Assembly (NCBI RefSeq): GCF_000381085.1
Contig: NZ_KB905899.1
Location: forward strand, 930,001-994,000
Length of the DNA stretch: 64,000 nucleotides
Direction of reading: 5' to 3'
Source of the DNA: Thiomicrorhabdus arctica DSM 13458
GTDB lineage: Bacteria > Pseudomonadota > Gammaproteobacteria > Thiomicrospirales > Thiomicrospiraceae
Shown here: positions 43,297 to 58,047 of the stretch, in pieces
How positions within the stretch are numbered: position 1 is the first letter of the stretch
Layout: every line of letters begins with the position of its first letter
Position numbers and translations under genes: made by a program
Notes under the pieces: generated by a model
The model's input: the letters and a program-made list of their open reading frames with translations, nothing else
Told to the model about the DNA's origin: nothing
Database searches by the model: none

Positions 43297-44592
43297 CTAA
43301 GCGTTCTGAGAAGATGCAAACCTGGCAGCATCACGTATGGCCGTCAAATCTTCAGTTATATCCAGTACAAGTTGCGCACGTTTCAGTGCCAGTTGACTAT
43401 GATACTCGGCGGCCTCTCGCATTTCTGAACCCCCTGTTGATGCAAGAGAGTGTAGCGCTTTTTGTAACCGCACTGACACTTCGACAGTACTTGCGCCGTC
43501 ACGGGCAATGGCCGTAAAAGCGTCATCGAACATATCACTCACCGAGACTTCAGGGACTTCTACTCGATCGTACTTTGGAACAGATTCATCTTTATCTTTA
43601 GCCTTATCGTCGGACTCAAACCCACTCCATAAGGCAAAAAGTCGCACCATGGTTCCTATAATATCAATGGCTGTACCCGGATCATTAACGGCTGGTGACA
43701 AAGCTCGTCCGGCAATTTCCGACAATACAACCAAACCAAATCGTGGGTCGTCATCAAACAGGCGATCATTTCCGATTTGGAACGAGTCAATAACACCTTT
43801 GTGGTTCATTTTAGGCCGGTCGCTAGGCAAGGTACTGACGTAGGCCAAAGCTCTTCCAGGCACGGCGAATGTGCCTGGCAAAGCCGCCACCACCACCCGC
43901 ACTTCATATTCTTCAGCCCACGTTTGAAGTGCAGCAATATCGATGTGTTGAACATAACCCACCTTTTCCGCAAACACAGCAAATCCTAGCGCTTGTCCAC
44001 TGACTGGCATGCCATAAAGCGTTGGGCCTTTTCGTCGACGTCGCAAGGCATCGGCAGTCGCCTTTTCAACCTTGCTAATCGTCGAGCCCATACGCCCCAG
44101 TCGGGCGACTCGATCAACCCAACGGACAAACATAATGATGACCAAGCCAAATACACTCGTTGTCAAAACAAAAAGAATAAAAAGACCTGCCGTCATAAAA
44201 TATTCATTCTTGACTGCAGTGAGAGCCACTATGCTAAAAATAAAGGCACCCACAAAAGTAGAAAGCGCATTCTGGGACGCATCATCTGCGACGACCAAAG
44301 TAAATGAACGAGGAGTTGCCGTGCTGCTTGCCGAAGCGTAAGCAGAGACCATTGAACCTACCGAAAAGGTGGCGATCACCAACATACTGGTGGCCATGAT
44401 GGACAACAGTGTCACAAGAGATTCTTCTGCAATCACAGGGACGATATTCGCTAAAGAAGTACCATCTGCAAATTTTGCGGTGAAGACCATCGCGATTGAG
44501 AGTAGACAAACGGCCAACGGCTTTACCCAAAGCCGGTCACGAAACCGATTGAGGATAACTCTGACTCGGTCCGATGAAAAAATAGAGGCCAT
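43297..44592 (-). CDS. DUF2254 family membrane protein
   Basis: A predicted inner-membrane protein of unknown function. Start at 44592 follows AAGGA; the frame opens nine codons earlier. Four helices in the first ~190 residues, then a soluble domain with GFAVFAEKVGYVQHID, RFGLVVLSEIAGRALSPAVNDPGTA, which are the DUF2254 hallmarks. 431 residues. First accessory gene on the minus strand; not obviously linked in function to the two small membrane proteins upstream. Confidence 0.85.
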   Translation of the reverse strand: MASIFSSDRVRVILNRFRDRLWVKPLAVCLLSIAMVFTAKFADGTSLANIVPVIAEESLVTLLSIMATSMLVIATFSVGSMVSAYASASSTATPRSFTLVVADDASQNALSTFVGAFIFSIVALTAVKNEYFMTAGLFILFVLTTSVFGLVIIMFVRWVDRVARLGRMGSTISKVEKATADALRRRRKGPTLYGMPVSGQALGFAVFAEKVGYVQHIDIAALQTWAEEYEVRVVVAALPGTFAVPGRALAYVSTLPSDRPKMNHKGVIDSFQIGNDRLFDDDPRFGLVVLSEIAGRALSPAVNDPGTAIDIIGTMVRLFALWSGFESDDKAKDKDESVPKYDRVEVPEVSVSDMFDDAFTAIARDGASTVEVSVRLQKALHSLASTGGSEMREAAEYHSQLALKRAQLVLDITEDLTAIRDAARFASSQNA

Positions 44593-44702
44593 CTTAAAGT
44601 CCTTTTTGCCGCTAAACAACAGAATAACCTGGCAACCGTTCAGTGGGTACGTTTTCCTGTTGAAACGGCAATCAGGTTATGTTTTTACGAGCGACTATTG
44701 AG

Positions 44703-44954
44703 TTAGGCCCTCTTGACGAGACTGATTATAAATAACAAAATAATAGCGCCAATTGTGGCCATAATAATAGCACCGAATAAGCCACCCGTTATAACATTAA
44801 GCAAACCGAATATAAAACCACCCAATATAGCGCCTAGAATTCCGACAATGATATTGCCTATGAGACCAAAGCCTCTTCCCTTCATTATGTTGCCGGCAAG
44901 CCAACCAGCCAATGCACCCACAGCGATAAATACGATTAAGCTTATTATATCCAT
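44703..44954 (-). CDS. GlsB/YeaQ/YmgE family small membrane protein
   Basis: 83 residues, three hydrophobic helices with the Gly-rich repeated pattern GWLAGNIMKGRGFGLIGNIIVGILGAILGG typical of the transglycosylase-associated (GlsB/YeaQ) family. In other bacteria such genes are stress-induced, often by the general stress or envelope response. It lies 13 bases downstream of the DUF3185 gene, so the two form an operon. Confidence 0.88.
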   Translation of the reverse strand: MDIISLIVFIAVGALAGWLAGNIMKGRGFGLIGNIIVGILGAILGGFIFGLLNVITGGLFGAIIMATIGAIILLFIISLVKRA

Positions 44955-44967
44955 ATTGCCTCCAAGG

Positions 44968-45177
44968 TTATTTTCTAGCGAAAAGGAAGAGACCTACAAC
45001 AAAACTGATCGCGCCAGTAATGTAGTATGTCATGACCTTATCTGTGTCTGCTCCTGTCACCGCTTCTGTTATCTGTGATCCGACAGAATCAGATAATTGA
45101 AACCCCCATACTGCAAGACCAATTCCTAAAACCATTAAGGCAAGACCCATAACTTTCATTGTCGCTGCTGAACCCAT
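44968..45177 (-). CDS. DUF3185 family small membrane protein
   Basis: 69 residues from the ATG at 45177, which has AGGAG at 8 bases. Two transmembrane helices (VMGLALMVLGIGLAVWGF and YITGAISFVVGLFLFARK) separated by a short polar loop (SVGSQITEAVTGA). The pattern matches DUF3185. Function unknown; paired with the GlsB-like gene. Confidence 0.8.
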   Translation of the reverse strand: MGSAATMKVMGLALMVLGIGLAVWGFQLSDSVGSQITEAVTGADTDKVMTYYITGAISFVVGLFLFARK

Positions 45178-45297
45178 TTGTTGAACTCCTATCATTTAAA
45201 AAAGACTAAATATATTTAATATAAAAACTAACGCTTAACCTAAATTGTTAAGAGTGGGCGTTAGCCTTTTAACTTTCGATGTTAATAAAAACCTAAT

Positions 45298-45372
45298 ATT
45301 AATAAGTATTTTAACTAACTATTGTAAGTTGGTTCAATACTATCAAATTAATTATTGGTTTGGTAGCTTATT
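45298..45372 (+). repeat. Dispersed intergenic repeat, copy A
   Basis: Contains AAGTATTTTAACTAA, then CAATACTATCAAATTAAT and GGTTTGGTAGCTTATT. Copy B at 56.0 kb matches all three blocks, and the similarity with B may extend upstream to the CGTTAGCC at about 45258. Confidence 0.6.
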
Positions 45373-45414
45373 TTTTCATCATATTGCCACACAGGCTCTT
45401 GTGAACAAGCCTAT

Positions 45415-45436
45415 AAACAACCAGGCCTGGTTGTTT
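45415..45436. repeat. Iterated palindrome, copy 5 (intergenic, 22-bp dyad)
   Basis: The 12-bp core at 45420-45431 is extended by AAACA / TGTTT flanks into a perfect 22-bp dyad, 43 bases downstream of repeat copy A. Confidence 0.9.
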
Positions 45437-45548
45437 TGATATAAATAGACAAGACAACCCCCTCTTTCAATAACGACACCTTACCACTGGCTCTTGACAA
45501 ATGAATAGAATAATCTAGGTTCAATGACCCATTAACGCCGAGTGTTAC

Positions 45549-46886
45549 TTATGGTTGTGATGTATTTTCATCGGACTCAACCGGATGGTATCGCAAGAAA
45601 AGCGCTTCACCTATTAGGATGAGTAACATGACTGTCACAGCAACGCCTACCACCAGTAAATCACTTGATATTTTTACCCAGAGGAATCCTGTCAGAACAA
45701 TCAGATCAAGAATGATCGCGGTTATAAGAATAGCACTATGGGCACCAATTTCTTGTCGGAGATGACGGAACACACCCCAATGGAGAGCAATATCCATTAT
45801 CAAGTAAAAAATAATGCCTAACGCCGCGATGCGTGACAGATCAAAGAAAGCCGTCAATAACAGACCCAAAACGACGGTATAGACCAAGGTATGCTTTTGG
45901 ATATTGCCCGGCATTCCAAAATGGCTGTGGGGAACAAGTTTCATATCAGTCAGCATGGCCAACATCCTTGAAACTGCAAATATGCTGGCAATCACCCCGC
46001 CCGCTGTCGCCAGCATAGCCAGCACAACGGTAAACCATACAGCATATTTACCAAGCGCCGGTTTAGCGGCTGCGGCTAGCGAGTAATTCTTCGTATCAAT
46101 AATTTCCTGAAGCGATAAATTGCTTGCGACAGCAAAGCCCACCAGTGCATATATAACAACACAGAGCGCGATGGAAATGATGATGGCTCTGCCCACATTC
46201 CGGTGTGGGTCTTTCAGCTCCGAACCACTATTTGTAATGGTTGTAAACCCTTTAAAAGCCAGAATACCAAGCGCCGTCGCCCCCAAAAAACCCGTCAAAG
46301 AGGTATCAAGATTCTGAGCTGAGAAATTCACTTCGGTGGAATCGGCTACGACAACCCCAACAATGCCAAACAAAACGATGCCGCCAATTTTGATAAACCC
46401 AAGTACTGATGAGACCCCTTGGATCATACTATTAGCCGATAAATTGATTAAAAAGGCCACCACTAATAATGCAACACCCAATGTCGGTACCAGCAAACTT
46501 GAATCACTGATTTCAAATAACTGTAGAGTGTAAGATCCAAATGTACGCGCCAGAAAACTCTGGGCAATGACCATCGAAAAATACATCAATAGAGCAAAGA
46601 AAGCCGTGGTCAATGTACTGCCATAGGCCTTTTTTAGGTACATAGCTATTCCGCCAGCCGATGGATACGCATTTGACATTTTGATATATGAGTAGGCGCT
46701 AAAGGAAACGACCAGCGCGGCCGAAAGAAACGCCAGAGGGAAAAGATTCCCGGTCATTTCAGCCATCTGACCGGTCAGGGCAAATATGCCTGCCCCAATC
46801 ATCACCCCTGTGCCAAGGGCAACCGCTCCGACCAATGTCAGACTGTCTTTGCGGTATCGTGAGGTCCTATCTTCAGTCATGTCCAT
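45549..46886 (-). CDS. APC-family amino acid permease
   Basis: Twelve-helix importer of the amino acid-polyamine-organocation superfamily. TLVGAVALGTGVMIGAGIFALTG near residues 16-38 is the helix-1 binding motif, and TNSGSELKDPHRNVGRAI around 215-232 is the conserved loop. 445 residues. Substrate cannot be assigned. The ATG at 46886 is followed by a second at 46880, either possible. Downstream lies repeat copy A, upstream copy C. Confidence 0.85.
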   Translation of the reverse strand: MDMTEDRTSRYRKDSLTLVGAVALGTGVMIGAGIFALTGQMAEMTGNLFPLAFLSAALVVSFSAYSYIKMSNAYPSAGGIAMYLKKAYGSTLTTAFFALLMYFSMVIAQSFLARTFGSYTLQLFEISDSSLLVPTLGVALLVVAFLINLSANSMIQGVSSVLGFIKIGGIVLFGIVGVVVADSTEVNFSAQNLDTSLTGFLGATALGILAFKGFTTITNSGSELKDPHRNVGRAIIISIALCVVIYALVGFAVASNLSLQEIIDTKNYSLAAAAKPALGKYAVWFTVVLAMLATAGGVIASIFAVSRMLAMLTDMKLVPHSHFGMPGNIQKHTLVYTVVLGLLLTAFFDLSRIAALGIIFYLIMDIALHWGVFRHLRQEIGAHSAILITAIILDLIVLTGFLWVKISSDLLVVGVAVTVMLLILIGEALFLRYHPVESDENTSQP

Positions 46887-47462
46887 ACTTTCGCTACTCT
46901 CTCATTGTTCAGGATTGATATTCTTTATCCTGGTGGTTCGAATGCCCGACTTTATGGGCCACTAAAGTGCAACCTAAGAACATTTTATATTTCAATAAAA
47001 ACTCATTATTAAAGTTGAATCCTTCTGAAGGCCTGATTCTAATGCAACGGCTTTACGACTTCTCTACAGAAAAAAATAATAGAGGCAAAGTAAAATTAAC
47101 CTTACGACGAAACCTTAATCTATCCATATACGATCTATCCATATACGATTTTATTAAACTTTTACTGCATTAAACAGTTTATTGTTAAGTATTTTAACTA
47201 ATCACATTGAGCCGCTCCAATATAGCAAATTAAGGAATGCTTTGGCAATGTGTATCCTGTGTATTTCCACACGGACCCGAGTAATAAAATCATACAATAA
47301 TGACATTTATGTTTTCAAACATGGTCATTGCAAGACTCTAAAACACATAACATTTAGAACAGCACCCCTTCTATTAAGCCGCTTAGGCGCACATTATAGG
47401 CGGACAGAAAAGAGCGGTCTCCATGCCCTTCTGGCATCACTTTACTGAAGTAGAGCCAACGT
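46887..47462. other. Intergenic region with repeat copy C and a 15-bp direct repeat
   Basis: Nearly 580 bases. It contains repeat copy C (47184-47250) and two adjacent copies of CTATCCATATACGAT (47120-47149). Open frames at 46967-47173 and 47182-47448 have no ribosome site and overlap the repeats, so they are not called. Confidence 0.5.
47184..47250 (+). repeat. Dispersed intergenic repeat, copy C
   Basis: GTTAAGTATTTTAACTAA at the left end equals copy A over 16-17 bases. It continues CCAATATAGCAAATTAA and TTTGGCAA, with a CCACACGG block further on resembling CCACACAGG near copy A. Confidence 0.6.
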
Positions 47463-48539
47463 TTATTTTTTACCCTTACCAAAGAGATTCAGGAGATCCT
47501 GTCTCAGGATTGGCAGAATATCTTTTACCAAAGATTCTTTAACAAGCTTGATTTGAAGTGCTTTTCCGTCCTTATGCAACGCTTTTATACAACTGTTTTT
47601 AAGCCTGTTATTTTGTATATATTTAAGCGCCTTAACATCTTTAGCCACCGCTTCAAGACAGATTTCTTTAGTCTGATGAGTGATATATTTAAGAGCATAA
47701 AAATTGGTACGAACGGCCTCTAAACAAATTTCGTCGGTTTGATTTTTAACGTAACCCACGAGTACCCCATCATGTCGAACTGCGATAAGACACATCTCTT
47801 CTGTTTGATGTTTTACATACTCAAGTGCGGCTCCATTTCGACGCACAGCGATAAGGCACATCTCTTCTGTTTGATCCTGTACGTGCCTCAGAGCAAGGGG
47901 ACTTTTATGAACCGCTTCAAGACAAATTTCTTGCGTTTGCTTTGTAACGTACTTGAGTGCATTGCCATTTTGACGAACAGCTTCCAGAGATATTTCTCGC
48001 GTTTGATTGGTGACGTATTCAAGAGTTGATCCATTCTGACGCACGGCTGCCAGGCATAATGCATCAGTTTTATGCTTTATAAACTTAAGATTGTCGGCGT
48101 CTTTAGTGATCGCTAATTGACATATTTCATCGGTCTGTTCAACGACATATTCGAAGGCGTATCCATTTTTAGTGACCGCTGCAAGGCATATCTCTTCCGT
48201 CTGATGTTCAACCATCCGCAGAACGGTTCCTGTTTCACGTACTGCCGCTAGACATATTCTATCCGTTTGATGGATAACATACATCAATGCCGTCCCTCGA
48301 TGATGAACGGCTTCTAGACATATTTCTTCTGTTTGGTTACGAACATACTGCAACGCCATATAGTCTTGCCGAACCGCTGCCAGACAGATTTCTAGCGTTT
48401 GATCGCTGACATATTCAAGAGCAGATCCATTTTCACGGACGGCTTCCAAGCAGATCTCTTCCGTTTGGTTTTTAATGTGCTTAAGTGCTAATCCATTTTC
48501 ACGGACGGCGTTAAGGTCTTTTAGTTGCTCGGTCATCAT
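47463..48539 (-). CDS. Solenoid protein of 22-residue repeats (DUF4116-like)
   Basis: 358 residues composed of about fourteen tandem units of 22 residues, of the form LEAVRENGSALEYVSDQTLEIC. Each unit has conserved Ala-Val, Gly/Asp, Ala-Leu, Val, Gln-Thr and a terminal Ile-Cys. The pattern resembles DUF4116, which forms helical repeats. No signal peptide or membrane segment, so it is cytoplasmic. The Cys at nearly every repeat end is striking. Ribosome site is weak. The last ~45 residues (KEGLVKDILPILRQDLLNLFGKG-type) depart from the repeat. Function unknown; perhaps a binding scaffold. Confidence 0.75.
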   Translation of the reverse strand: MMTEQLKDLNAVRENGLALKHIKNQTEEICLEAVRENGSALEYVSDQTLEICLAAVRQDYMALQYVRNQTEEICLEAVHHRGTALMYVIHQTDRICLAAVRETGTVLRMVEHQTEEICLAAVTKNGYAFEYVVEQTDEICQLAITKDADNLKFIKHKTDALCLAAVRQNGSTLEYVTNQTREISLEAVRQNGNALKYVTKQTQEICLEAVHKSPLALRHVQDQTEEMCLIAVRRNGAALEYVKHQTEEMCLIAVRHDGVLVGYVKNQTDEICLEAVRTNFYALKYITHQTKEICLEAVAKDVKALKYIQNNRLKNSCIKALHKDGKALQIKLVKESLVKDILPILRQDLLNLFGKGKK

Positions 48540-48660
48540 GGCCTATCTATCGTTGATGCAAAATGAATGATGTCACTTTTTTAGGTGATAAAAAAGGAGA
48601 CACTCTGTTTTAATTTTTTGTTGAATAAGAGACAACTATTACGCGTTGTTCTACCATCCT

Positions 48661-48690
48661 TTTAAGATGGTCCAATATATCAAATTTACC
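48661..48690 (+). repeat. Dispersed intergenic repeat, copy E (core only)
   Basis: Shares the central block TCCAATATATCAAATT with copies B and C; its flanks have diverged. Next to it GGATCTTGGTAAATT repeats part of the element in inverted form. Confidence 0.45.
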
Positions 48691-49009
48691 AAGGATCTTG
48701 GTAAATTAACGCCTCATTTACATTCCATTATGACAATATTTCCTCCCACCTCTTTTAACCCTATTATTACGTTCTATAAAATTTGAAGACAGAAGCAGAG
48801 TAAGTGCAAATTACGAGCATGCAATTGAGCTTAATTCGATGTAGGTCATGATTAGGAGGGATTGTGATGCTGCGTGCTAGAAATAAGTTAAAAGAGAAAA
48901 ATTAAGCGTAAACGGAATGTCGTTGATGCATTAAGTCGGCGGGTCGTGATGAAATCAAATAAATTTCACTCCGTTCCCAAATTTATATAAGCTTTTTCAT
49001 GATCTATTT

Positions 49010-49051
49010 TTAATGACATAACGTTAATGACATAACTTTAATGACATAACG
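49010..49051. repeat. Tandem repeat (TTAATGACATAACK)x3
   Basis: Three head-to-tail copies of a 14-base unit differing only at the last base (G, T, G), in non-coding DNA upstream of nothing obvious. Confidence 0.9.
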
Positions 49052-49171
49052 GATGTGTTTGTCGGCTGCTTTATTTAGGTTTGCACGCAATATCCTATTT
49101 TTTACAAATTCGATTCCTTTCGTAAACCAATGACCAAGTGACACTCCTTCTATTTTCATTTAGACAATGCA

Positions 49172-51178
49172 TTAAGCAACGGTTGGATGCCGTAGCGCCG
49201 CCCAGCTTTTTAGAGCCATGTCTTGTACTTGATCGAATTCTTCTGTGGGCAGTTCGATCATGTCTGTCTGCATTGGAATGGACTCGTCATGAAAAATATA
49301 CAGGCGTGAAGCCAGTTCAGGGAACGGCAGAGATGCTTCGCCGAAACGTTCACCGTGTCCGTGGGTGGAGACCACCACACCATTACCCCAGTCCTGACCA
49401 CTGTCATTATTGGGGTTGTAAAAATACACACGCATCACCTCACCCTGGTCGAGGGCAACGCGCAACAAAGTGATGGCATGCCAGCCCACGAATTGAGCAT
49501 TACTGTCGGTCACCGCAATGCCCGCCGGCTGTGGATGAATCACTGGTTGATTGCCATTGTATAATGGGTGATAACTGCGATAGAACTGGGCGAGATAATG
49601 GGTATAATCCTGTTTCATCTTACCCGTAGCAACATCTACGGCAATGAAGAATTCGCGTCCCACCCACCAACCGTGAAATTCTGGGTTAATCCAACGGTGT
49701 GGGTCTTCTCCCCGTCCCACACAAGCCTCACCCATAGCGTGATACACCCGATCAAGATGAGGCACAAGTACAATCGAAACTGGATCGGTATCGAGTGGAA
49801 TATCACTCGCCAGACCAGGGGGGAGTTCCGCGGAAGCAATGAGCTGGCCTTCGAAATTCATCTGAATATTATCAAAACGAGCCGCCTGTGCAATTAGGTG
49901 GAGTAAGAAGTCTGGATCGTTATATGACCACATAGAAATGGCGCGTGCCGACTGGCAAGTGGGGTTATTACCTTGACCCACACCCAGTGGCTGACCCAGA
50001 ACAGAAATCACCCCCGCAAGCAGGCGTACCCTAGGCGTCACTTCATCGCCATAAGCCGTCTGCAGTGCCGTTTTGGCCTGTGCCGAGGGCTGTAAATTAA
50101 GCTGACGCCATAACCCTGGAGCAATGGGTGGTGAATAGAGAATACCGCGCTCCAGTAGCATCGCCAATCCATATACTGTCTGTGCGGTTTGCGGGTGAAT
50201 GGCTTCTTCAATGAGCTTGTGAATCAAGTCCTGATAAGTGCGCAGAGCATCCAGCCCAGTACTACTCAGACCCAAAGCATCTGGTATTAACTGGCTTTGC
50301 TCATGTTGCAGTAACCAACGCAGGTAGCCGGCGTGGTAATCGGATACTAAACCAACGTCTAGCATTGCCCGGGAGAAACCATAGGCTTCCCGTTGCAGGG
50401 TCGGAAAGTCCATGACCTCCAATCGCAATAGGTAGACCTCCATCCCAGGATCATCTAGGCAGCCCTGGGTCGGACTGAACAGTGCACTGATCAATCGATC
50501 CGATCCCAATAAAGCTTCCCCAATATTACCCACTCCCTCTGTCAGGGTCAGGGCTATTTGGGTCACCATCGTTTTCACACCATCGACCTGAATAGGTCGC
50601 TGAGCCAATATGCGCCATATTTCTTCAATCAGGCTACCGAGAATATTTTCAAACCCTATGTGTTCCAGCAGATAACGAAACAGTGCTTGGAGCCCATCTC
50701 CCAAACGACCAAGCCGAGTCCGTTGGGTCTCATTAGCAAGCCCAAACTGATAACTGAGATTCAGTGCCAGCACCTGGGTGAGGAAATGGCGTGCCTGCTC
50801 GACGGAAATGCCTTCATGCTTGTGCACGCCCTTAGCAATTGCCAGCAGTCGCAATTCACTCAGACATTCCAATATAACCAAAGATTTACTGCCCTGTTCA
50901 AGCGTATTGTGTACCAGACTAGGCAACAGTGCACCTGGCTCAGCCCAATCAGTGCCGTCAAATAGTTCGGCATCATCCAGCCTAGGCGCCAGAGCATAGA
51001 GTTGTTGAATGCCACCCGGTTGTGCCAACATGCGCCCGGCTAATTCCAATACTGGCGACTGGAAGTTAAGCCTAGCGAAGGAGCTGGCCTGTTCTAATTG
51101 ACCTATGGCATGCTCCAGCTTTTCTTGCAGCAGCCGAGTTTGTTCATTAGTAGCAGCCGGTTCCGCGTTGGCGTTCAT
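49172..51178 (-). CDS. Large protein with helical N-terminus and papain-like C-terminal domain, function unknown
   Basis: 668 residues; ATG at 51178 has AAGGA at about 7 bases. Not recognised as a named family. The first ~380 residues are predicted mostly helical with heptad-like leucines. From ~400 the pattern suggests a papain/transglutaminase fold: QGNNPTCQSARAISMW with Cys near 408, GWHAITLL with His near 565, and YNPNNDSGQDWG with Asn/Asp near 589, in the Cys-His-Asn order of C1-like enzymes. It begins 11 bases after the ATP-grasp gene, so the two are coexpressed. The base composition is visibly GC-richer than the flanks, suggesting transfer. Substrate unknown. Confidence 0.65.
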   Translation of the reverse strand: MNANAEPAATNEQTRLLQEKLEHAIGQLEQASSFARLNFQSPVLELAGRMLAQPGGIQQLYALAPRLDDAELFDGTDWAEPGALLPSLVHNTLEQGSKSLVILECLSELRLLAIAKGVHKHEGISVEQARHFLTQVLALNLSYQFGLANETQRTRLGRLGDGLQALFRYLLEHIGFENILGSLIEEIWRILAQRPIQVDGVKTMVTQIALTLTEGVGNIGEALLGSDRLISALFSPTQGCLDDPGMEVYLLRLEVMDFPTLQREAYGFSRAMLDVGLVSDYHAGYLRWLLQHEQSQLIPDALGLSSTGLDALRTYQDLIHKLIEEAIHPQTAQTVYGLAMLLERGILYSPPIAPGLWRQLNLQPSAQAKTALQTAYGDEVTPRVRLLAGVISVLGQPLGVGQGNNPTCQSARAISMWSYNDPDFLLHLIAQAARFDNIQMNFEGQLIASAELPPGLASDIPLDTDPVSIVLVPHLDRVYHAMGEACVGRGEDPHRWINPEFHGWWVGREFFIAVDVATGKMKQDYTHYLAQFYRSYHPLYNGNQPVIHPQPAGIAVTDSNAQFVGWHAITLLRVALDQGEVMRVYFYNPNNDSGQDWGNGVVVSTHGHGERFGEASLPFPELASRLYIFHDESIPMQTDMIELPTEEFDQVQDMALKSWAALRHPTVA

Positions 51179-51189
51179 CACGTATTCCT

Positions 51190-52416
51190 TCAGATATAAT
51201 AATCGAGCTCTTCCTGGGCTTTTAGTAGATCTCGTAGACGATATGGATCCTCTCCAAAAAAGTATACCAGACCCCAGTGTGTGCCGAAGGCGCTACGCTT
51301 AGGCACTTTGTTTTGCATAGGCGACTGCAGTTCATGAAACTCAAAATAACTATCATTTTCGGTCGCTTCCGGTATTTTAAGTTCACTGATGACGCGTCGG
51401 CGCGGATAAACACCAAAGCAACCAGCATGTCCTTTGGCGTCCACCACTTCCCGTGGGAAAAACGCTTTAATTTCCTCATCGGTGGTTTTCGGGTCAAACA
51501 TCATAACGAGAGCCTGGTAGGCGCTGAAACCATAGGCACGTTCAATCAGCTCGAAGGCATTGAAACCTGGTGGCCGGTAAGCCACCTCACCGAAGTACAT
51601 TTTACCATCACTGGTCACAAAATATTCGGGATGTATGAAACCGAAGTCGATATCGAAGGTTTCGATCAGCTTTTCGATTTCCGCAACCACCTGGGGCCGC
51701 CACTTTTCCAGGTCGGGGGTGGCGGGTACGAACACCGAGTACCCCAGAGTGACATACTCAGATATATTTAGAAAATGGATCTTTCGGTTTTTGATAAACG
51801 CCTCGACGGCAAATTCCCATCCGTCGAGGTGGCTTTCCACCAGTGCGGGAAATTCTTCATCGGGTATATTAGCCACATCGTCTGGGGTGCGGATAACATA
51901 GTGCCCCAGACAGCCAGCTTTGTTGAAGGCTTTAAGGTGAATCGGGTCATTGGGATCACCATCCAATTTTAATAGAGCCTGATTGACCCGTTTGAGAAAA
52001 TGGATAACATCATCCCTGTCGTGCGCCTCTTCAAAGATGCCGACACGAATGCCGCCAAGCTGCGCACGTCGTTTCATCATTGCCTTGTCACGGAACAGTA
52101 ATGATTGACCCATAAAACGTGGGTTGTTCAGCAATACTGAGTTGATTGCGCCAGCCCATTCCACCGTTTCTTCAAACAGTGGAATAGCGACATCGACGCC
52201 CTCCTTTTTTAATTGTTCGGCAATCTCCATGGAACACTCATTTAGCTGTTCGAAATTCCAGGAAATGAAAGGTATGCTGTGTTCCTTCGCATATTCTTCT
52301 GCCCATGATGGTGCGACAATGACATAACGACGGTCAAAATTTTCAAGGGCGTTAATGGCATTTACACTCCAGCCAAGAATGGCTACATAGCCTTTATCAG
52401 GATTTTTTGGTGTCAT
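51190..52416 (-). CDS. ATP-grasp ligase-like protein
   Basis: Start at 52416 follows AGGAGG at 6 bases, an ideal site; a 19-codon extension is rejected. The N-terminal ~110 residues form a pre-ATP-grasp Rossmann-like domain (VAILGWSVNAINAL). ATP-grasp features are LKAFNKAGCLG (~162), FPALVESHLDGWEFAVEAF and FGFIHPEYFVTSDGKMYFGEVAYRPPGF (~258-280), the latter carrying the metal-binding Glu and the Arg-Pro-Pro-Gly loop. 408 residues. Such enzymes join a carboxylate to an amine or thiol through an acyl phosphate. No known pathway genes are near; its partner is the papain-like protein just downstream. Confidence 0.8.
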   Translation of the reverse strand: MTPKNPDKGYVAILGWSVNAINALENFDRRYVIVAPSWAEEYAKEHSIPFISWNFEQLNECSMEIAEQLKKEGVDVAIPLFEETVEWAGAINSVLLNNPRFMGQSLLFRDKAMMKRRAQLGGIRVGIFEEAHDRDDVIHFLKRVNQALLKLDGDPNDPIHLKAFNKAGCLGHYVIRTPDDVANIPDEEFPALVESHLDGWEFAVEAFIKNRKIHFLNISEYVTLGYSVFVPATPDLEKWRPQVVAEIEKLIETFDIDFGFIHPEYFVTSDGKMYFGEVAYRPPGFNAFELIERAYGFSAYQALVMMFDPKTTDEEIKAFFPREVVDAKGHAGCFGVYPRRRVISELKIPEATENDSYFEFHELQSPMQNKVPKRSAFGTHWGLVYFFGEDPYRLRDLLKAQEELDYYI

Positions 52417-52632
52417 ATTAAGCCTCCTAAGGGGGTAGAGGGAATCTATAACGCTAAAACGTGAACCGTGCAAAAGTTGTACTGGTCATCCACATCCGCG
52501 TTATCGGATTGAAAATAAGTTTTGAGTGGAAAAAGTGAAGATGGGTCAAATATAAATGCAGACTCCGCTAAAGCTTTAGGATTTACAACCGCTAACGTTT
52601 GACTGGACATGCAAGTAAAACACCTTATAAAT

Positions 52633-52700
52633 ACGTAATTTAACGAACACTCTTACCTTCAAGTAATATATCAAACTAATAACTGTATGGGTAATTTATC
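52633..52700 (+). repeat. Dispersed intergenic repeat, copy D (diverged)
   Basis: TACGTAATTTAACGAA, AATATATCAAACTAATAACTG and GGGTAATTTAT align loosely with the blocks of copy B. This is the most diverged of the five copies. Confidence 0.4.
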
Positions 52701-52746
52701 TTACTGAATAATTCCCACATTCAACATGGAAATACATCATAAAATT

Positions 52747-52760
52747 AACCAGGCCTGGTT
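52747..52760. repeat. Iterated palindrome, copy 6 (intergenic, 14-bp dyad)
   Basis: Core ACCAGGCCTGGT at 52748-52759 with A/T flanks, between the NRAMP gene and the ATP-grasp gene. Confidence 0.85.
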
Positions 52761-52862
52761 GGTTGAGAAGAATGGCACTTCGGGAGAGAGGCAGATGAAT
52801 GGATTTAAAAGCTCGCTTTTTTCACAATGAGGCAAGCATGAAAATGGCTGTGTGAATAGGAT

Positions 52863-54140
52863 TCACACAGCTTTCAAGGCATCAATGGTCAACATGATCA
52901 ATAGCCAAAGATTCAATGCAACAATAATTGCCGTGGCCGACCAAGCTGTTACCTTGGTTTTTAGATCATTCGTCAGATCCCCCATCAGGTGTGGATTGGA
53001 GGTCATCCTCACTAAGGGAATCACCGCAAACGGCAATTGCATAGATAAAACGACCTGAGACAATACCAACAGGCTTAAGGGTTTGGCACTCATCAATATG
53101 GCTAAAGCGGCTGGAAACATGGTCGCTAAACGTATGTAGAGACGAATTTTGAGGATATTGAGGGGTCTTTTTTTAAAAAAGGATTCAAATACAATTTGCC
53201 CAGCCAAGGTTCCGGTGGTCGAACTGGCAATCCCCGACGCCAATAAAGCGATCGCAAACGTTAATGCGGCGGCATCACCTAATAATGGCCCCAGGGTTTT
53301 ATAGGCCTCATCAATATCGGTAATGAGTAAACCTTGTTCATGAAATGCCGCTGAAGCCATGATTAAAATGGCTGAATTAACCAGCCATGCACCTACTAGC
53401 GCGATAACCGTATCCCATTTCATCATTTTGTAGAAACGTTGACGCACCTCTTTAACATCTCCATTGCCTTCTCGACGGCTAATTACTTGATGCGAATGTA
53501 AATAGAGGTTATGCGGCATAACAGTTGCCCCTAAAATACCCATGGCAATAAACAGTGCGGTGGTATCCAAAATAGTTGCATTGGGTATGGCCATTGCAGA
53601 AATGACCTCCGCCCACTGTGGCTCTGCCAACCAGAGCTCAACCACGTATCCCAAACCGATCGTCACCACAAAGGCCATAATGGTCATTTCAACCCAACGA
53701 AAACCAAAACGCTCCAGCCACAAAATCAGTAACACATCAAAAATAGTTAGAAAAATCCCCACTACCAATGGAATATCAAACAGCAGATTTAAAGCGATCG
53801 CTACCCCTAAAAACTCTGCCAAATCCGTTGCTACCATAGCGATAGCGGCAGAGGAGAGCAATAAGGTACCGCCGTTTCCAGGGTGTTGCTGGCGAATCAT
53901 TTGTGCAAGATTTTTACCCGTTGCAATGCCCAACTTGGCACTCAATAACTGCATTAAAATGGCGATTAATGAGGCCAAAGTAATCACCCACAAGAGGTCA
54001 TAACCATAACGAGAGCCCGCCTCCAATGAAGTCGCCCAATTTCCTGGGTCCATATACCCGACTGAGACCAAAAATGCGGGTCCTATGAAAAACCAAAACG
54101 AACGTTTGGTACTCAAAGATGTGTTTACAGAATGGCTCAT
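52863..54140 (-). CDS. mntH: NRAMP-family divalent metal (Mn2+/Fe2+) transporter
   Basis: Proton-coupled metal importer with eleven helices. The metal-site motif DPGN is at residues 31-34 (GYMDPGNWATSLEAG) and MPHNLYLHS near 216 supplies the second half-site. 425 residues. A perfect AAGTTAGC-N4-GCTAACTT dyad lies upstream (54225-54244), like MntR operators, which supports manganese regulation. The symbol is based on family only. Confidence 0.9.
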   Translation of the reverse strand: MSHSVNTSLSTKRSFWFFIGPAFLVSVGYMDPGNWATSLEAGSRYGYDLLWVITLASLIAILMQLLSAKLGIATGKNLAQMIRQQHPGNGGTLLLSSAAIAMVATDLAEFLGVAIALNLLFDIPLVVGIFLTIFDVLLILWLERFGFRWVEMTIMAFVVTIGLGYVVELWLAEPQWAEVISAMAIPNATILDTTALFIAMGILGATVMPHNLYLHSHQVISRREGNGDVKEVRQRFYKMMKWDTVIALVGAWLVNSAILIMASAAFHEQGLLITDIDEAYKTLGPLLGDAAALTFAIALLASGIASSTTGTLAGQIVFESFFKKRPLNILKIRLYIRLATMFPAALAILMSAKPLSLLVLSQVVLSMQLPFAVIPLVRMTSNPHLMGDLTNDLKTKVTAWSATAIIVALNLWLLIMLTIDALKAV

Positions 54141-54197
54141 AGTGATCTTATTAACTTTATTGTTTTATAATTCAGTGATCTATTATTAACCTAAAAA

Positions 54198-54218
54198 TAG
54201 ATTAATTAGACTAATCTA
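54198..54218. promoter_or_regulatory. Dyad TAGATTA-N7-TAATCTA upstream of NRAMP gene
   Basis: Perfect 7-bp arms around a 7-base centre, about 60 bases before the start. It could be a second regulator site or overlap the promoter. Confidence 0.4.
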
Positions 54219-54224
54219 ATCCAT

Positions 54225-54244
54225 AAGTTAGCCATAGCTAACTT
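54225..54244. promoter_or_regulatory. Putative MntR-type operator
   Basis: AAGTTAGC CATA GCTAACTT is a perfect 8-bp-armed dyad with 4-base spacer. It shares the TAGC-N4-GCTA centre and spacing with the published MntR box AACATAGC-N4-GCTATGTT. It sits 85 bases upstream of the NRAMP start. Confidence 0.5.
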
Positions 54245-54631
54245 TAGTGAATAACTATAACAAAAATGAATAAGCAATACAGATATTTCAGTCACTTGGC
54301 AAGTTTTTATATAAGAAAATAAACAATTGTTTGTTGGTCTTATTTAAGAGACAGCATCCAGCAAACAATAAAAATCAAGGAAACGATGAATAACGCCTTT
54401 AAAACCCTTTACAGAGTTGGTATTCGATTCGCAAAGTCCATCCCTAAAATCGACAGGCCTGGTCAGTGCTTGTTTTTTTTTGATTTTGAAAGCATGAAAA
54501 CAGCAGGGAAAATGAAGGGTTATCTATAGAATGTAAAACGAACGCGTTAACACTCACCCGACAGACGGCTTCAATGAGGAGAATTTAACTTCGATTCAAT
54601 TGTGTTTTCACTCTCAGGTCATATTTCAGGG

Positions 54632-55765
54632 TCAACGTGGGCTTAATAAAGCGATGTTATTGGCATGAAAGAGCGCCGCCTCCTTCACTGCAGCACAGCC
54701 ATCATCTATCGGCAGTATATTGATGTCAGTGATAGTGTTTCCGGCCAGTGCATTGACTACCGCATGTCCGCTGTCACCCAATGCTTTGGTATTGTACCCC
54801 CCTTCAAGCATCAGGACTAACCGTCCATCACAGAGTTCATCGGCTAGAGCACAGACACTCTGAGTAATTGCAGCATAGCCGGTCTCATCCATGGCAAACG
54901 TCATGTCGAGATAATGGCAATCAAAACCCGAAGAAATCAATAGAATATCGGGTTGAAATGCCCGTGCAGCCGGACTTACTATCTGCTTAAATACTTCAAG
55001 CAATGCCGCATTACCACTCCCTCTTGGCAAGGGTACATTAAGGGTGTAACCCACCCCCGCTCCTTCGCCAGTTTCAGTCAGCAACCCTGTGCCGGGATAA
55101 AAAGGTGCCTCACAATGACTGTCGACCAGCAATACGTTCGGATTGGCATAAAAGATGGCCTGGGTACCGTTGCCGTGATGCATGTCCCAGTCCCAGATCA
55201 TGACCCGTGCATCACCGAGTGCGAGGCGGGCATGCGCGGCAGTGACCGCCATATTATTATAAAGACAGAAACCCATTGCGCGATCGGCCATGGCGTGATG
55301 CCCGGGTGGGCGCACGATACAAAATGCACGGCGTGCTTGACCTGTGGCTATAGCATCTATGGCGCAAACCCCCGACCCTGCAGCCAGGCCAGCAGCCACA
55401 ACGCTGTGCGGCGATACGGCGGTCGTGTCCTGAAAAAGCCAGCCCGACTGACCTTCTAATGTTGGTATATAACCCACATAAGCGGCATCATGTGCCTGTT
55501 CAAGTTGAGCCACACTGGCAGCGACTGGTGGCATCCAGCGTACGCCTTCAATAGGTTCGAGAAAGAGTCGATCCACGATAGCGGTCAAACGTCCCGGACG
55601 CTCGGGATGGTCGTAGGTCTCAAGATTAGTGTCGGGAGATTGCAGCGCTATCATGGCCTTGACCGCATCAGTCCATTCGGGATGCCCCGGGTCCCACCCT
55701 TGCGGATTATGGCCGAGCATGCCCGGATCATAATAGATTAATACTGGGACCCTTATATCTGTCAT
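54632..55765 (-). CDS. Histone deacetylase-like amidohydrolase (acetylpolyamine/acuC family)
   Basis: A zinc-dependent deacetylase-fold enzyme that removes acetyl groups from lysine-like or polyamine amides. The motifs are RPPGHHAMADRAMGF (His156-His157), DWDMHHGNGTQ (Asp194, His196 as zinc ligands) and SSGFDCHYLD (Asp282). The C-terminal LMLEGGYN is also typical. 377 residues. Its DNA is clearly GC-richer than the AT-rich gaps on both sides, suggesting horizontal origin. It is monocistronic, followed by the metal-operator region and preceded by a long gap with repeat B. Confidence 0.9.
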   Translation of the reverse strand: MTDIRVPVLIYYDPGMLGHNPQGWDPGHPEWTDAVKAMIALQSPDTNLETYDHPERPGRLTAIVDRLFLEPIEGVRWMPPVAASVAQLEQAHDAAYVGYIPTLEGQSGWLFQDTTAVSPHSVVAAGLAAGSGVCAIDAIATGQARRAFCIVRPPGHHAMADRAMGFCLYNNMAVTAAHARLALGDARVMIWDWDMHHGNGTQAIFYANPNVLLVDSHCEAPFYPGTGLLTETGEGAGVGYTLNVPLPRGSGNAALLEVFKQIVSPAARAFQPDILLISSGFDCHYLDMTFAMDETGYAAITQSVCALADELCDGRLVLMLEGGYNTKALGDSGHAVVNALAGNTITDINILPIDDGCAAVKEAALFHANNIALLSPR

Positions 55766-56508
55766 CCAAGTTCCATCTGTAACACCAGCGTGCCCTTGAC
55801 GAACTGCAGTGGCGTGTTAACTCGATTGAATACAATGCTTTTAAAAATTAGCATAAAACTGAAAGTATGCTTATTATTTAACAAGTTATGAGGGAAATAT
55901 AACATGGTCAATTAACCTTATTTTTAGGACCTTGTATTTAAAAAAGGAACACTGTTTCGTTAACCTTTACGGTCATTAAAAGCCGCTTCACATTAAGTAT
56001 TTTTACCAATAAATAAAGCTCGGCCAATATATCAAATTAATGCTGGGTTTGGTAGTTTATTCTGTTATGACACTCCTGCTTTGGAATGCTTTTTAAAAGT
56101 AACCTAGCTTGATTATTTTTAAAAAGGACATTTAAAATAACTCAAAATTAACAGGTAACACCCTCTTTTTTACTTGGTAATTTTATTTTGGAGTGGTTTT
56201 TAAGGATAGAGGCCATCCCTAAACAAAAGTTGGGAGGAGTAACTTTTTTCATTATAAGTGGCTTGTTGATATTGGAGATTTAGAACATTCTGAAATAGTG
56301 GGTTCCGTTGGATTCGTTATCGTAGGTTAGCTAAAGTTTGATTAAAGTCTTGATACATTCCCGCGAAACATGACCTAAACCTTAAGATGTCAGTAATCAC
56401 ATGATGAACGATTAATATCTTATTTCATTCGGCGTATAGTGAAGGTGAGTGCGTAAATTCACTCAGGATTATTTCAATTTTATTCTATGACTAATTCAGA
56501 GGTGACAT
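55766..56508. other. Long intergenic region with repeat copy B
   Basis: About 740 bases between divergent genes. Repeat B (55992-56060) is the only element seen. No RNA or gene recognised. Confidence 0.5.
55992..56060 (+). repeat. Dispersed intergenic repeat, copy B
   Basis: ATTAAGTATTTTTACCAA, GGCCAATATATCAAATTAATG and GGGTTTGGTAGTTTAT match copy A block for block. Upstream CGTTAACCTTT also lines up with CGTTAGCCTTT near copy A. Confidence 0.6.
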
Positions 56509-56733
56509 ATGAAAAAACAACTGATTGCACTACTTATGGGTGTGGCTTTTACCTCCTCAGCTTTCGCATTAGATCAAAGTCCAGTTGACGTTAAAGGCTC
56601 AGGCGCCGCGATGGAACAGGGCTTTGAGGCTTGGGCAAAAGATGTTTTAAACTATGGAGGAAAAGGCGGACAGGTTCTTGCAGGTGAAGTGAAGGCATGG
56701 GTTCAGGACTATAATAAAATGCCTCACACCTAA
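56509..56733 (+). CDS. Small secreted protein, function unknown
   Basis: 74 residues. A clear signal peptide MKKQLIALLMGVAFTSSAFA with cleavage after Ala20 and an AGAGGTGAC ribosome site. The mature ~54-residue chain (LDQSPVDVKGSGAAMEQGFEAWAKDVLNYGG) is neutral, helical and rich in Gly. No family recognised. It is the only plus-strand gene among minus-strand accessory genes. Confidence 0.65.
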   Translation: MKKQLIALLMGVAFTSSAFALDQSPVDVKGSGAAMEQGFEAWAKDVLNYGGKGGQVLAGEVKAWVQDYNKMPHT

Positions 56734-57040
56734 GATAAATGCCCTCTTATTTCACTCTCTCTTTTAAGACTGCAAAGACGACATTAAGAGCGACCCTATT
56801 CTATTGACCGTATGCTATTAATAGGGAAGCTCCTTATCCGGTTCCAGAATTGTTCATTTAACAAAGTGGTGGTTTTGAAACTGACCAGGCCTGGTCAGAT
56901 TTAAAACGAAACGTTTTTTGAATGGTAAAGGACTAATGTTTTGACGATATCCTTGTTTATATGATCTAGCAAAACTTAAAAATCGTGCCTGCCCCCATTT
57001 ATTCTGATGGGTATCATAGCCTTTGGTTTTTCAAGGATTC
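56734..57040. other. Intergenic region with palindrome copy 7
   Basis: Just over 300 bases between convergent genes. Only the palindrome is noted; no attC-like site is seen here at the 3' side of the 57041-57598 gene. Confidence 0.5.
56881..56898. repeat. Iterated palindrome, copy 7 (18-bp dyad)
   Basis: Core at 56884-56895 extended by CTG/CAG to a perfect 18-bp dyad. Confidence 0.9.
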
Positions 57041-57598
57041 TCACCCTGCCTCTATCCCGCTTAATACCTTATAAAACGCGTCATACAAATCCCTCAACAC
57101 TTCCGGATCGATAACGCCTTTTTCTATGGTGAATTCCAAGAAAGGCTCCTTCTCTTTTTGACCGTCTACAGGATGATGTGTAATGTGTAATGCAAACCGG
57201 GATAGTGACTGAAATAACTCTCTAACGTTTACGTCAGAGAATATCCGACGCGTTCGTTCCCGGTCATTCGTTTTTATGATGAGTGCTTCATCAAATTCCG
57301 GGTAACCAATCACCACATCCTCCATGCCGAAAAACTTTTCGACTGTGTCTATGAAATCTTGGTGATGCAGAGCAAGACGAAAGTCATGTTCCGATGCAAC
57401 AGGCGCTTCAAAAGAAGTTAACTCATAACCGCTTTCAAAACCACCGCCCAGATCAATATCAATCACCAGTTCCACTTTCCTCCCGTCTTGCACCAGAAAG
57501 ACGTTGTAATTATAAATTTCTTGGCCAGATAGATCATCAGATACCTGCTGCCAGATATCATCTGTAGTGCTACCAGAGATCTGTTTTGTTGCTGCCAT
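57041..57598 (-). CDS. Hypothetical cytoplasmic protein downstream of an attC-like site
   Basis: 185 residues from the ATG at 57598, which has AGGA at 8 bases. No family recognised. Predicted alpha/beta, soluble, with IGYPEFDEALIIKTNDRERTRRIFSDVNVRELFQSL and a segment LHITHHPVD. No signal peptide. It lies 190 bases downstream on the minus strand of a site that resembles an integron attC, so it could be an acquired cassette gene. Possibly a stand-alone effector or immunity-type protein, but nothing decides this. Confidence 0.6.
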   Translation of the reverse strand: MAATKQISGSTTDDIWQQVSDDLSGQEIYNYNVFLVQDGRKVELVIDIDLGGGFESGYELTSFEAPVASEHDFRLALHHQDFIDTVEKFFGMEDVVIGYPEFDEALIIKTNDRERTRRIFSDVNVRELFQSLSRFALHITHHPVDGQKEKEPFLEFTIEKGVIDPEVLRDLYDAFYKVLSGIEAG

Positions 57599-57786
57599 AT
57601 GTTTCATCCTTTTAAAATACCTGAATAACCTTAGTCGTTAGTTTTACTTTCTAAAACGAGCCATCCATGAGGGCTAGCTTAGACAGTAGAACAGCAATGG
57701 TAGCCACCACTACGATCCAGAATAACCAGTCAAGCTATAGTGGTGTTGTCACTTTGTCCAATTGCGTTTACCTGCAAATTATGCAG

Positions 57787-57839: not shown

Positions 57840-57952
57840 AAAGCCTACAGAACAATTGCGGTAATTTTGCGACCAAAGTTCAATGTTTTATTGTTGTTAG
57901 CTGGCAATTAACTGTACAGATAAGTACGTAATTTGTAAAGAAGGTATTTATA

Positions 57953-57974: not shown

Positions 57975-58047
57975 CTTGCGGGCTTTTGATTTTGGAATAG
58001 TTTAAAACGTTAAGAGAAACCGACGTGTCGTTTTTAGAAATTGAAAT

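What the first reader, a model, noticed from the sequence alone, without database searches (positions are those of the whole stretch)
49172..52416. Two-gene ATP-grasp plus papain-like module of unknown function
An ATP-grasp ligase-like gene with an ideal ribosome site is followed after 11 bases by a 668-residue protein whose C-terminal part shows Cys (~408), His (~565) and Asn/Asp (~589) in papain order. ATP-grasp/peptidase-fold pairs are known in peptide-tag and amide-ligation systems. No known natural-product, glutathione or cyanophycin genes accompany this pair, so it may be a new ligase/transferase system. Composition differs from flanks, hinting at transfer.
Basis: partly seen in the sequence, partly recalled or inferred. 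Interest (0 to 1): 0.72.

Follow-up and report, generated by a model that had tools for sequence, protein, structure and literature searches.

The report
Salt-linked amide ligase and papain-like module
Two neighbouring genes, one for an enzyme that probably joins amino acids and one for a new papain-like enzyme, travel together through salt-adapted bacteria along with a third gene for a deacetylase, which points to an undescribed pathway that makes and remodels a small amide compound or tag.

Summary
P2 (51190-52416, -; 408 aa, ATP-grasp) is followed after 11 bases by P1 (49172-51178, -; 668 aa). P1 matches no Pfam, NCBIfam or PADLOC family. It is a ~390-residue helical domain plus a probable papain-like domain, with Q402, C408, H567 and N588 invariant in 94 of 94 aligned proteins. 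P2's nearest folds are L-amino-acid ligases. The pair is a real module: in 369 Gammaproteobacteria genomes the same 13 carry both and none carries one alone, and 97 of 111 collected loci have them adjacent, in four arrangements. (1) Every genome with full-length P1 in two draws (13 of 13; 9 of 9; two genomes shared) also encodes ectoine synthase, against 57 of 369 and 51 of 339 overall. (2) A histone-deacetylase-like amidohydrolase subfamily (P3; window 54632-55765) tracks the pair: 19 of 22 P1 genomes, 0 of 22 ectoine-synthase-positive controls, 0 of 28 close kin, and next to the pair in eight other loci. I infer a ligase / papain-like amidase-or-transferase / deacetylase set in salt-adapted bacteria, analogous to but not a member of glutathionylspermidine synthetase/amidase. 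The substrate is unknown; no reaction is shown.

The parts
51190..52416 (-). P2: 408-aa ATP-grasp protein, L-amino-acid-ligase-like
   Evidence: Sub-threshold ATP-grasp_4 hit, 19.9 bits vs 27; structural neighbours BL00235, RizA and YwfE/BacD; E264, E277, R281, G284 invariant
49172..51178 (-). P1: 668-aa protein, N-terminal all-helical domain (about 7-395) and C-terminal probable papain-like domain (about 400-635); C408, H567, N588, Q402
   Evidence: No family hits; AlphaFold2 model, mean pLDDT 85.8; weak calpain/staphopain/C1 matches; residues invariant in 94 of 94
54632..55765 (-). P3: HDAC-class-II-like amidohydrolase, 377 aa
   Evidence: PF00850, 285.4 bits; nearest solved relatives HDAC6 and HDAH; subfamily adjacent to the pair in 8 other loci; 19 of 22 vs 0 of 22 and 0 of 28 genomes
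52863..54140 (-). Nramp-family transporter between P3 and P2; probably not part of the module
   Evidence: PF01566; no relative in the 97 loci searched
52423..52428 (-). AGGAGG ribosome-binding site of P2
   Evidence: Read from the sequence

Best explanation
P2, P1 and P3 form an amide-chemistry module in salt-adapted, ectoine-synthesising bacteria. SHOWN by computation: P2 has an ATP-grasp fold closest to amino-acid ligases; P1 is a family absent from Pfam with an invariant papain-type Gln/Cys/His/Asn set; P1 and P2 occur, lie and diverge together; an HDAC-like amidohydrolase subfamily tracks them; every genome with a full-length P1 in two draws also has ectoine synthase. INFERRED: P2 uses ATP to activate a carboxylate as an acyl-phosphate and join it to an amine. 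P1 attacks an amide or ester carbonyl with C408 (activated by H567, oriented by N588, oxyanion held by Q402) through an acyl-enzyme, and either hydrolyses the conjugate or passes the acyl group to another amine. P3 removes an acetyl cap from the amine or the product. The whole makes, trims or recycles a small amide conjugate (dipeptide, amino-acyl amine or acylated polyamine/diamine) whose level matters under salt stress, probably in the cytosol (localisation not tested). This works like glutathionylspermidine synthetase/amidase (ATP-grasp ligase plus papain-like amidase on one pool), with different proteins.
For: P1/P2 co-occurrence: the same 13 of 369 genomes (P1 at E<=0.001, P2 at E<=1e-60), none with one alone (Fisher 3e-24). 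Adjacency (under 600 bp) in 97 of 111 loci: 90 P2-P1, 2 P1-P2, 3 divergent, 2 convergent. Distance-matrix correlation r 0.86 for 94 loci, 0.67 for 54 non-redundant, 0 of 2000 permutations as high in either. Ligase fold: BL00235 Z 25.8 and RizA Z 24.4, YwfE/BacD 21.3-21.4; PurK-type 20.7 and below. Papain signature invariant (also 16 of 16); the model puts H567 in a strand and N588 just after the next strand. Ectoine synthase in 13 of 13 (class) and 9 of 9 (phylum) genomes with full-length P1 (p 8e-12 and 2e-8; by genus in the class draw 5e-9). P3: 19 of 22 vs 0 of 22 controls vs 0 of 28 kin. Other amide enzymes beside some P1 copies: GCS2-like ligase plus AstE/AspA-like protein (L145, L148; weak Pfam hits), Amidoligase_2 plus Peptidase_C26 (L065, with relatives in L064), ectoine synthase (L032) and ectoine hydroxylase (L063).
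Against: No substrate or activity is known. The best papain-like fold match has Z 5.4, below helical matches of the N-terminal domain (up to 7.1); no Foldseek hit passes E 0.001; a profile search finds no papain relative; the oxyanion loop (400-407) and loop 495-507 are modelled with pLDDT under 50. The residue conservation is partly biased: the scan that found most homologues used patterns containing C408 and N588, although H567 was in no pattern and the 16 were not found by patterns. P3 is not found at E 1e-60 in G011 and G220, and G438 has only a weak hit; away from the pair it has no constant neighbour. Nine loci show P1 without P2 nearby and three P2 without P1. 44 of 57 ectoine-synthase genomes in the class draw lack P1, and ectoine synthase may only mark salt tolerance. 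Well-studied Halomonas species are not known (recalled) to hold a major unexplained amide solute.
Confidence: 0.5

Rival explanations
1. The module makes a new peptide-type compatible solute (for instance a capped dipeptide or amino-acid amide): P2 forms the peptide bond, P1 amidates or trims it, P3 controls the acetyl cap.
For: Link to ectoine synthase, with ectC right after P2 in L032 and ectD beside P1 in L063; ligase fold. N-carbamoyl-glutamine amide and N-acetylglutaminylglutamine amide are known solutes, and a 2005 review says the enzymes for the neutral dipeptide and derivatised amino acid 'have not been explored' (PMC1224877, passages; enzymes for the dipeptide were found later, recalled).
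Against: Halomonas solutes are well studied and no such major solute is known there (recalled). P2 matches no NCBIfam model at cut-off. Only 13 of 57 ectoine-synthase-positive genomes carry it.
Confidence: 0.2
2. A protein-tagging system: P2 adds an amino acid or peptide to proteins, P1 removes it (deconjugating protease), P3 deacetylates lysines to expose the site.
For: ATP-grasp RimK with the protease RimB, and RloC with RloA, are precedents, the latter linked to osmotic stress (PMC12239564, passages). P1's large helical domain could bind proteins. P3's nearest solved relatives are HDAC6 and HDAH.
Against: P2's nearest folds are free-amino-acid ligases. No recurrent small tag gene within 2 kb in 54 loci. 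GCS2-like and Amidoligase_2 neighbours of some copies fit small molecules as well.
Confidence: 0.12
3. P1 is simply a peptidase that degrades P2's peptide product, or cell peptides, for nitrogen or osmotic recycling; no transferase chemistry.
For: Papain-type active site; Peptidase_C26 and AstE/AspA-like neighbours of some copies would be hydrolases.
Against: The partnership with a ligase suggests a shared pool rather than general proteolysis. No signal-peptide search was run; none is obvious by eye in the P1 N-terminus.
Confidence: 0.2
4. The ectoine and P3 associations are only a shadow of halophily and shared ancestry; P1/P2 have an unrelated job.
For: The 80 named relatives kept are mostly from genera known for saline habitats (habitat recalled, not tested). 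P3 is unlinked in many P1 genomes and has no constant neighbour there.
Against: P3 is absent from 22 ectoine-synthase-positive genomes and from 28 close relatives without P1, and sits beside the pair in eight loci with varied orientation.
Confidence: 0.2

Closest known systems
L-amino-acid ligases (BL00235, RizA, YwfE/BacD)
   Same: ATP-grasp fold over nearly the full length (Z 25.8, 24.4, 21.3-21.4); E-V-x-x-R at the second metal site as in BL00235 (alignment)
   Different: 13-17% identity; constant papain-like partner
Glutathionylspermidine synthetase/amidase and trypanothione synthetase
   Same: ATP-grasp ligase combined with a papain-like Cys amidase (amidase classed as CHAP/C51.A in PMC10318531, passages; ligase fold recalled)
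   Different: Separate genes; no CHAP or GSP_synth hit up to E 1; P1 has an extra ~390-residue helical domain
Papain-like clan CA peptidases (calpain, staphopain, C1)
   Same: Q-x5-C, H, N order and a weakly similar core
   Different: No sequence match to any Pfam or PDB member
HDAC6/HDAH/acetylpolyamine amidohydrolase family (for P3)
   Same: Full PF00850 domain with PGHHA, WDxHHG, GFD and EGGY motifs
   Different: Own subfamily of two branches 47-49% identical; hits start at query residue 20 or earlier in the 19 P1 genomes, at 37 or later in the generic HDAC hits listed
N-acetylglutaminylglutamine amide and N-carbamoylglutamine amide solutes
   Same: Salt-linked, amide-capped amino-acid products (PMC1224877, passages)
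   Different: P1 and P2 match no NCBIfam family at cut-off
Rim and Rlo operons of Pseudomonas
   Same: ATP-grasp protein with a dedicated peptidase; Rlo has an osmotic role (PMC12239564, passages)
   Different: Aspartic peptidase, not papain-like
ATP-grasp and 'New_papain' genes in predicted methionyl-tRNA-synthetase-like peptide clusters
   Same: ATP-grasp ligases and a newly described papain-like family in one kind of gene cluster (PMC2922099, passages)

Membership tests
ATP-grasp superfamily (P2) | ATP-grasp fold | tested here: met
   342 Foldseek matches at E<=0.001; the 50 rows shown are ATP-grasp enzymes; Z up to 25.8
ATP-grasp superfamily (P2) | Conserved acidic metal ligands | tested here: met
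   E264 and E277 invariant in A2 and A4; their role as ligands is inferred from the alignment with BL00235
L-amino-acid ligase | ATP-dependent joining of two amino acids | not testable with these tools
   Needs assay
Papain-like clan CA | Gln / Cys / His / Asn in papain order, invariant | tested here: met
   94 of 94 and 16 of 16 found without patterns; the scan patterns held C408 and N588
Papain-like clan CA | Papain-like fold | tested here: inconclusive
   Clan CA chains recur for residues 375-640 but Z is at most 5.4 and Foldseek E above 1
Papain-like clan CA | Thiol-dependent hydrolase or transferase activity | not testable with these tools
   Needs assay
Glutathionylspermidine synthetase/amidase | GSP_synth and CHAP domains | tested here: not met
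   Neither is among the Pfam hits up to E 1
NCBIfam-modelled ligases (NAGGN enzymes and others) | Match above curated cut-off | tested here: not met
   P2 best hit PRK07206 20.9 bits vs cut-off 302; P1 none
Known anti-phage defence systems | PADLOC match | tested here: not met
   0 families for both
HDAC-like amidohydrolase (P3) | PF00850 above cut-off with catalytic motifs | tested here: met
   285.4 bits vs 27.9; motifs in alignment
Ribosomal-peptide (RiPP) ATP-grasp system | Recurrent precursor-peptide gene beside the ligase | tested here: not met
   54 non-redundant loci, ORFs of 22-110 aa within 2 kb; the 12 largest clusters hold at most 5 loci and lie inside other genes where checked. 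A precursor elsewhere in the genome is not excluded

The most novel reading that the evidence does not exclude
A new, horizontally spreading three-enzyme cycle of salt adaptation, found alongside ectoine synthesis: an amino-acid ligase, an unrecognised papain-like acyl-transferase family and a dedicated HDAC-like deacetylase build and remodel an unknown acylated-amine metabolite, a bacterial counterpart of the trypanothione/glutathionylspermidine cycle in salt-adapted bacteria.
Probability: 0.3. Interest if true: 0.78.

Novelty: new variant of a known kind. Interest (0 to 1): 0.64.

Why it matters
The pattern gives a concrete lead: a metabolite or tag tied to salt adaptation in ectoine producers, including the industrial genus Halomonas, with three candidate genes that can be deleted singly. 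It also gives a bacterial HDAC-like subfamily a frequent genetic partner; such enzymes mostly lack assigned substrates (recalled).

Tried and rejected
Ruled out or left unsupported: a RiPP-type precursor peptide beside the pair (2060 small ORFs in 54 loci; the 12 largest clusters hold at most 5 loci and, where I checked coordinates, lie inside the deacetylase, Mqo or other larger genes); a defence system; a phage origin (no match); a constant fourth gene (apart from the pair and the deacetylase, the recurrent neighbour clusters are mostly Halomonas or Marinobacter synteny, or families spread at varied distances of several kb; I did not annotate them all; P3 loci away from the pair share no neighbour beyond near relatives). 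A sequence link of P1 to papain was not found. PHROGs was not scanned. Neighbours that proved housekeeping or non-recurrent: Mqo, ExaC aldehyde dehydrogenase, ABC permeases, fatty-acid desaturase, pseudouridine synthase, Nramp.

Rows dropped. From A3: L052 (P1 split in two ORFs) and L064 (no intact ORF in my call), then 55 of the remaining 78 loci were used plus the window (the rest judged by me to be near-duplicates). From A4: L061 and L067 (short), L069, L079, L120, L126 (P2 in two pieces), then 46 of the remaining 72 plus the window. The 94 loci are those with exactly one P1 and one P2 ORF less than 1200 bp apart, near-duplicates and the window included. The 111 loci include several copies from one genome and close relatives, so they are not independent. 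G722 (74-residue hit, E 3e-4, no ectoine synthase) is not counted as P1; counting it gives p 2e-7. The 22 controls were 22 of the 44 P1-negative matches, the first in listing order except that I skipped G042, G053 and G017 (own family) and G118, G126, G164, G188 and G257 (weak, partial or incomplete). The 28 kin were 28 of the 40 P1-negative genomes of two genera, chosen for completeness. P3 queries used the L030 relative, whose own genome (G405) is one of the 19; without it 18 of 21.
Full report
OBSERVATION. The window holds, on the minus strand, P2 (51190-52416, 408 aa) and, 11 bases later, P1 (49172-51178, 668 aa). P2 has AGGAGG six bases before its ATG. P1 is richer in G+C (51%) than the nine other genes measured (40-48%); P2 (47%) is not, and third-position G+C does not single the genes out.

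FAMILIES. P1 has no match up to E 1 in Pfam, NCBIfam or PADLOC; of 16 homologues scanned against Pfam, one has a single hit at E 0.029. P2 has only sub-threshold ATP-grasp hits.

DISTRIBUTION. In the order, 3 of 62 genomes carry P1, and only 1 of the 32 of the window's own genus. In a class draw, 13 of 369 genomes carry P1 and the same 13 carry P2 at E<=1e-60; with the two relatives from the order draw, 15 of 15 P1 genomes have P2. A scan of named genomes found at least 582 relatives; the 80 kept include Halomonas, Marinobacter, Salinivibrio, Microbulbifer, Rhodobacteraceae, Hoyosella, Nocardia, Desulfobulbaceae and one bin labelled Planctomycetaceae. No relative was found in phage records or viral contigs; one was found in plasmid records, a 1.8-Mb Halomonas replicon that carries both genes.

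LINKAGE. Of 111 loci examined, 97 have P1 and P2 less than 600 bp apart: 90 P2-P1 on one strand, 2 P1-P2, 3 divergent, 2 convergent. One (L032) has the third gene between them, one same-strand locus counts as separated (by the coordinates this is L052, whose P1 is in two pieces), 9 show P1 only and 3 P2 only. Several single loci are extra copies in genomes that also have a pair (L028, L029, L145, L146, L148, L156); in G347 P1 and P2 lie about 55 kb apart; L058 lies near a contig end; in L064 my ORF call missed P1, which tblastn sees; L056 has no P2 within 10 kb. Changing order and orientation argues against inherited synteny alone. P1 and P2 distance matrices agree (r 0.86 for 94 loci, 0.67 for 54 non-redundant; 0 of 2000 permutations as high), though shared species history contributes. 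In the P1 tree two Thermodesulfobacteriota rows fall in a supported set of eight with Gammaproteobacteria and the window, and Actinomycetota fall in two places, in line with transfer but not proof of it.

ACTIVE SITE. In 94 of 94 aligned P1 proteins Q402, G403, P406, T407, C408, H567, A568, N588, P589 and N590 do not vary; nor do D492, H494, W496, N498 and E500. Caution: the scan behind most of these loci used two patterns, one with the C408 region and one with the N588 region; H567 was in neither, and in the 16 proteins, found by whole-protein search, all four are invariant. The order Q-x5-C ... H-A ... N resembles papain (recalled). In P2, E264, E277, R281 and G284 are invariant; BL00235 has E-V-x-x-R at the second site too.

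STRUCTURE. P1 models at mean pLDDT 85.8, with helices from 7 to 395 and a mixed domain from 400 on; H567 lies in the 563-576 strand, N588 just after the 582-587 strand; 400-407 and 495-507 are under 50. No Foldseek match reaches E 0.001. Of 967 chains realigned, calpain cores match within 375-637 at Z 5.2-5.4 over 169-190 residues and two P. distasonis cysteine peptidases at 5.3-5.4, at a level the tool itself calls middling; the top rows are helical proteins on the N-terminal domain, Z up to 7.1. So the papain-like fold is plausible, not shown. P2 (mean pLDDT 75.7) matches L-amino-acid ligases best: 3vot Z 25.8, 4wd3 24.4, 3wo1/3wnz/3vmm 21.3-21.4; 4dim (a phosphoribosylglycinamide synthetase) intervenes at 23.6, and PurK-type enzymes follow at 20.7 and below.

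SALT LINK. Ectoine synthase (PF06339) matches in 57 of 369 genomes of the class draw (53 over the cut-off) and in 13 of the 13 with P1. In a phylum draw of 339, 51 match (50 over the cut-off), and 9 of the 9 with full-length P1; a tenth genome, G722, has a 74-residue P1 hit at E 3e-4 and no ectoine synthase. Fisher p 8e-12 and 2e-8 (2e-7 with G722); by genus in the class draw 5e-9. G000 and G423 are in both draws. In the order, 44 of 62 match, so that draw says little. Conversely, 44 of the 57 in the class draw lack P1. In L032 ectoine synthase, that genome's only one found, follows P2 on the same strand; in L063 the ectoine hydroxylase lies about 440 bp from P1 on the other strand. In the window's own genome ectoine synthase sits about 760 kb from the pair. 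Whether the link is to ectoine itself or to salt tolerance is open.

THIRD COMPONENT. An HDAC-like amidohydrolase lies in the window at 54632-55765, 2.2 kb from P2 with an Nramp gene between. Of the 111 loci, eight others have a relative within 570 bp of the pair: L027, L030, L032 (between P1 and P2), L050, L052, L053, L081 (cut by the contig end) and L152, on either strand; three of these are Desulfobulbaceae bins. Weaker relatives lie 3 and 9 kb away in L114 and L072. Genome-wide, at E<=1e-90, the subfamily is in 19 of 22 P1 genomes (no hit at 1e-60 in G011 and G220; E 2e-65 in G438) and 0 of 22 ectoine-synthase-positive genomes without P1, where two hits reach about 1e-61. One of the 19 is the query's own genome; in G721 the aligned frame has one TAG. 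Five of the 19 (G000, G218, G319, G328, G421) have only the second branch, E 1e-96 to 1e-103; the first branch alone gives 14 of 22. Among 28 P1-negative close kin, 24 have HDAC-like proteins at E<=1e-20, none better than 4e-63. Fisher p 2e-9, by genus 7e-8 (13 of 15 vs 0 of 20), 5e-11 against kin. The 1e-90 line was drawn after seeing the scores; between 2e-65 and 1e-96 lies only a 117-residue fragment in the query's own genome. Away from the pair, P3 has no constant neighbour in 16 regions.

OTHER AMIDE ENZYMES. Extra P1 copies in two genomes of one genus sit with a GCS2-like ligase (23.3 and 26.8 bits, cut-off 21) and an AstE/AspA-like protein (23.8 and 24.8 bits, below the cut-off of 25) (L145, L148). 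In Salinivibrio L065 the pair is followed by an Amidoligase_2 protein (201.8 bits) and a Peptidase_C26 protein (157.4 bits), with relatives of both in L064. Most other neighbours scanned are housekeeping or unassigned genes.

MECHANISM. I favour a ligase that builds an amide, a papain-like enzyme that hydrolyses or exchanges it through a Cys acyl-enzyme, and a deacetylase acting on the same pool. Glutathionylspermidine synthetase/amidase shows that such an arrangement exists (papain-like classification; the rest recalled). Steps shown: linkage, co-occurrence, residue conservation, folds (P2 firmly, P1 weakly). Steps inferred: every reaction, the substrate and the location.

LITERATURE. Nine searches: ATP-grasp with papain-like, operon, osmolyte (11 papers); Halomonas with ATP-grasp, hypothetical protein, salt stress (none); N-acetylglutaminylglutamine amide with ectoine (16, 12 listed); ectoine with ATP-grasp (5); L-amino-acid ligase with papain, gene cluster, halophiles (16, 12 listed); HDAC-like with ATP-grasp, cysteine protease, neighbourhood (1); glutathionylspermidine with ATP-grasp, CHAP, amidase (50, 10 listed); hydroxyectoine with ATP-dependent ligase (none); solitary ectC (6). 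No listed title or abstract start describes this module; of four papers I read passages only. The most relevant survey of amidoligase neighbourhoods (Iyer et al. 2009) is not held, and the 'New_papain' family of PMC2922099 could not be compared, so a prior mention of P1 cannot be excluded.

VERDICT. A real and widespread module that these searches did not find described. New family within known or probable folds; strong genetic association; mechanism open.

Noticed in passing
window 3155, 9095, 13864, 31302, 45420, 52748, 56884, 57958, 63797: Palindrome ACCAGGCCTGGT occurs 9 times exactly (11 with one mismatch; 0.09 expected) and 333 times in the whole genome against 0 for the reversed control: a highly iterated palindrome of unknown role.
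   Followed up: partly
window 58245-58328: c-di-GMP-I riboswitch (55.5 bits, cut-off 35) on the + strand, upstream of the gene at 58487-60781, which reads as a PAS/chemoreceptor protein (which covered 44000-60000; gene name by reading).
   Followed up: no
window 47463-48539: Protein with nine DUF4116 repeats encoded by 66-base repeats, with no relative in the 97 P1 loci searched.
   Followed up: no
L145 11035-14841; L148 10847-13368: Extra P1 copies followed by a divergent GCS2-like ligase and an AstE/AspA-like protein (in L145 a metallo-beta-lactamase-fold gene lies between): a second P1 context without P2.
   Followed up: partly
L065 12100-13781; L064 12109-13790: Salinivibrio: Amidoligase_2 protein plus Peptidase_C26 protein after the pair.
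   Followed up: partly
L153 12210-13532: Phage-integrase-family gene near a P1 copy, a possible trace of mobility.
   Followed up: no
window 26214-27458: Two tandem, similar response-regulator-like genes beside a nitrate-type ABC transport set; seen by reading only.
   Followed up: no
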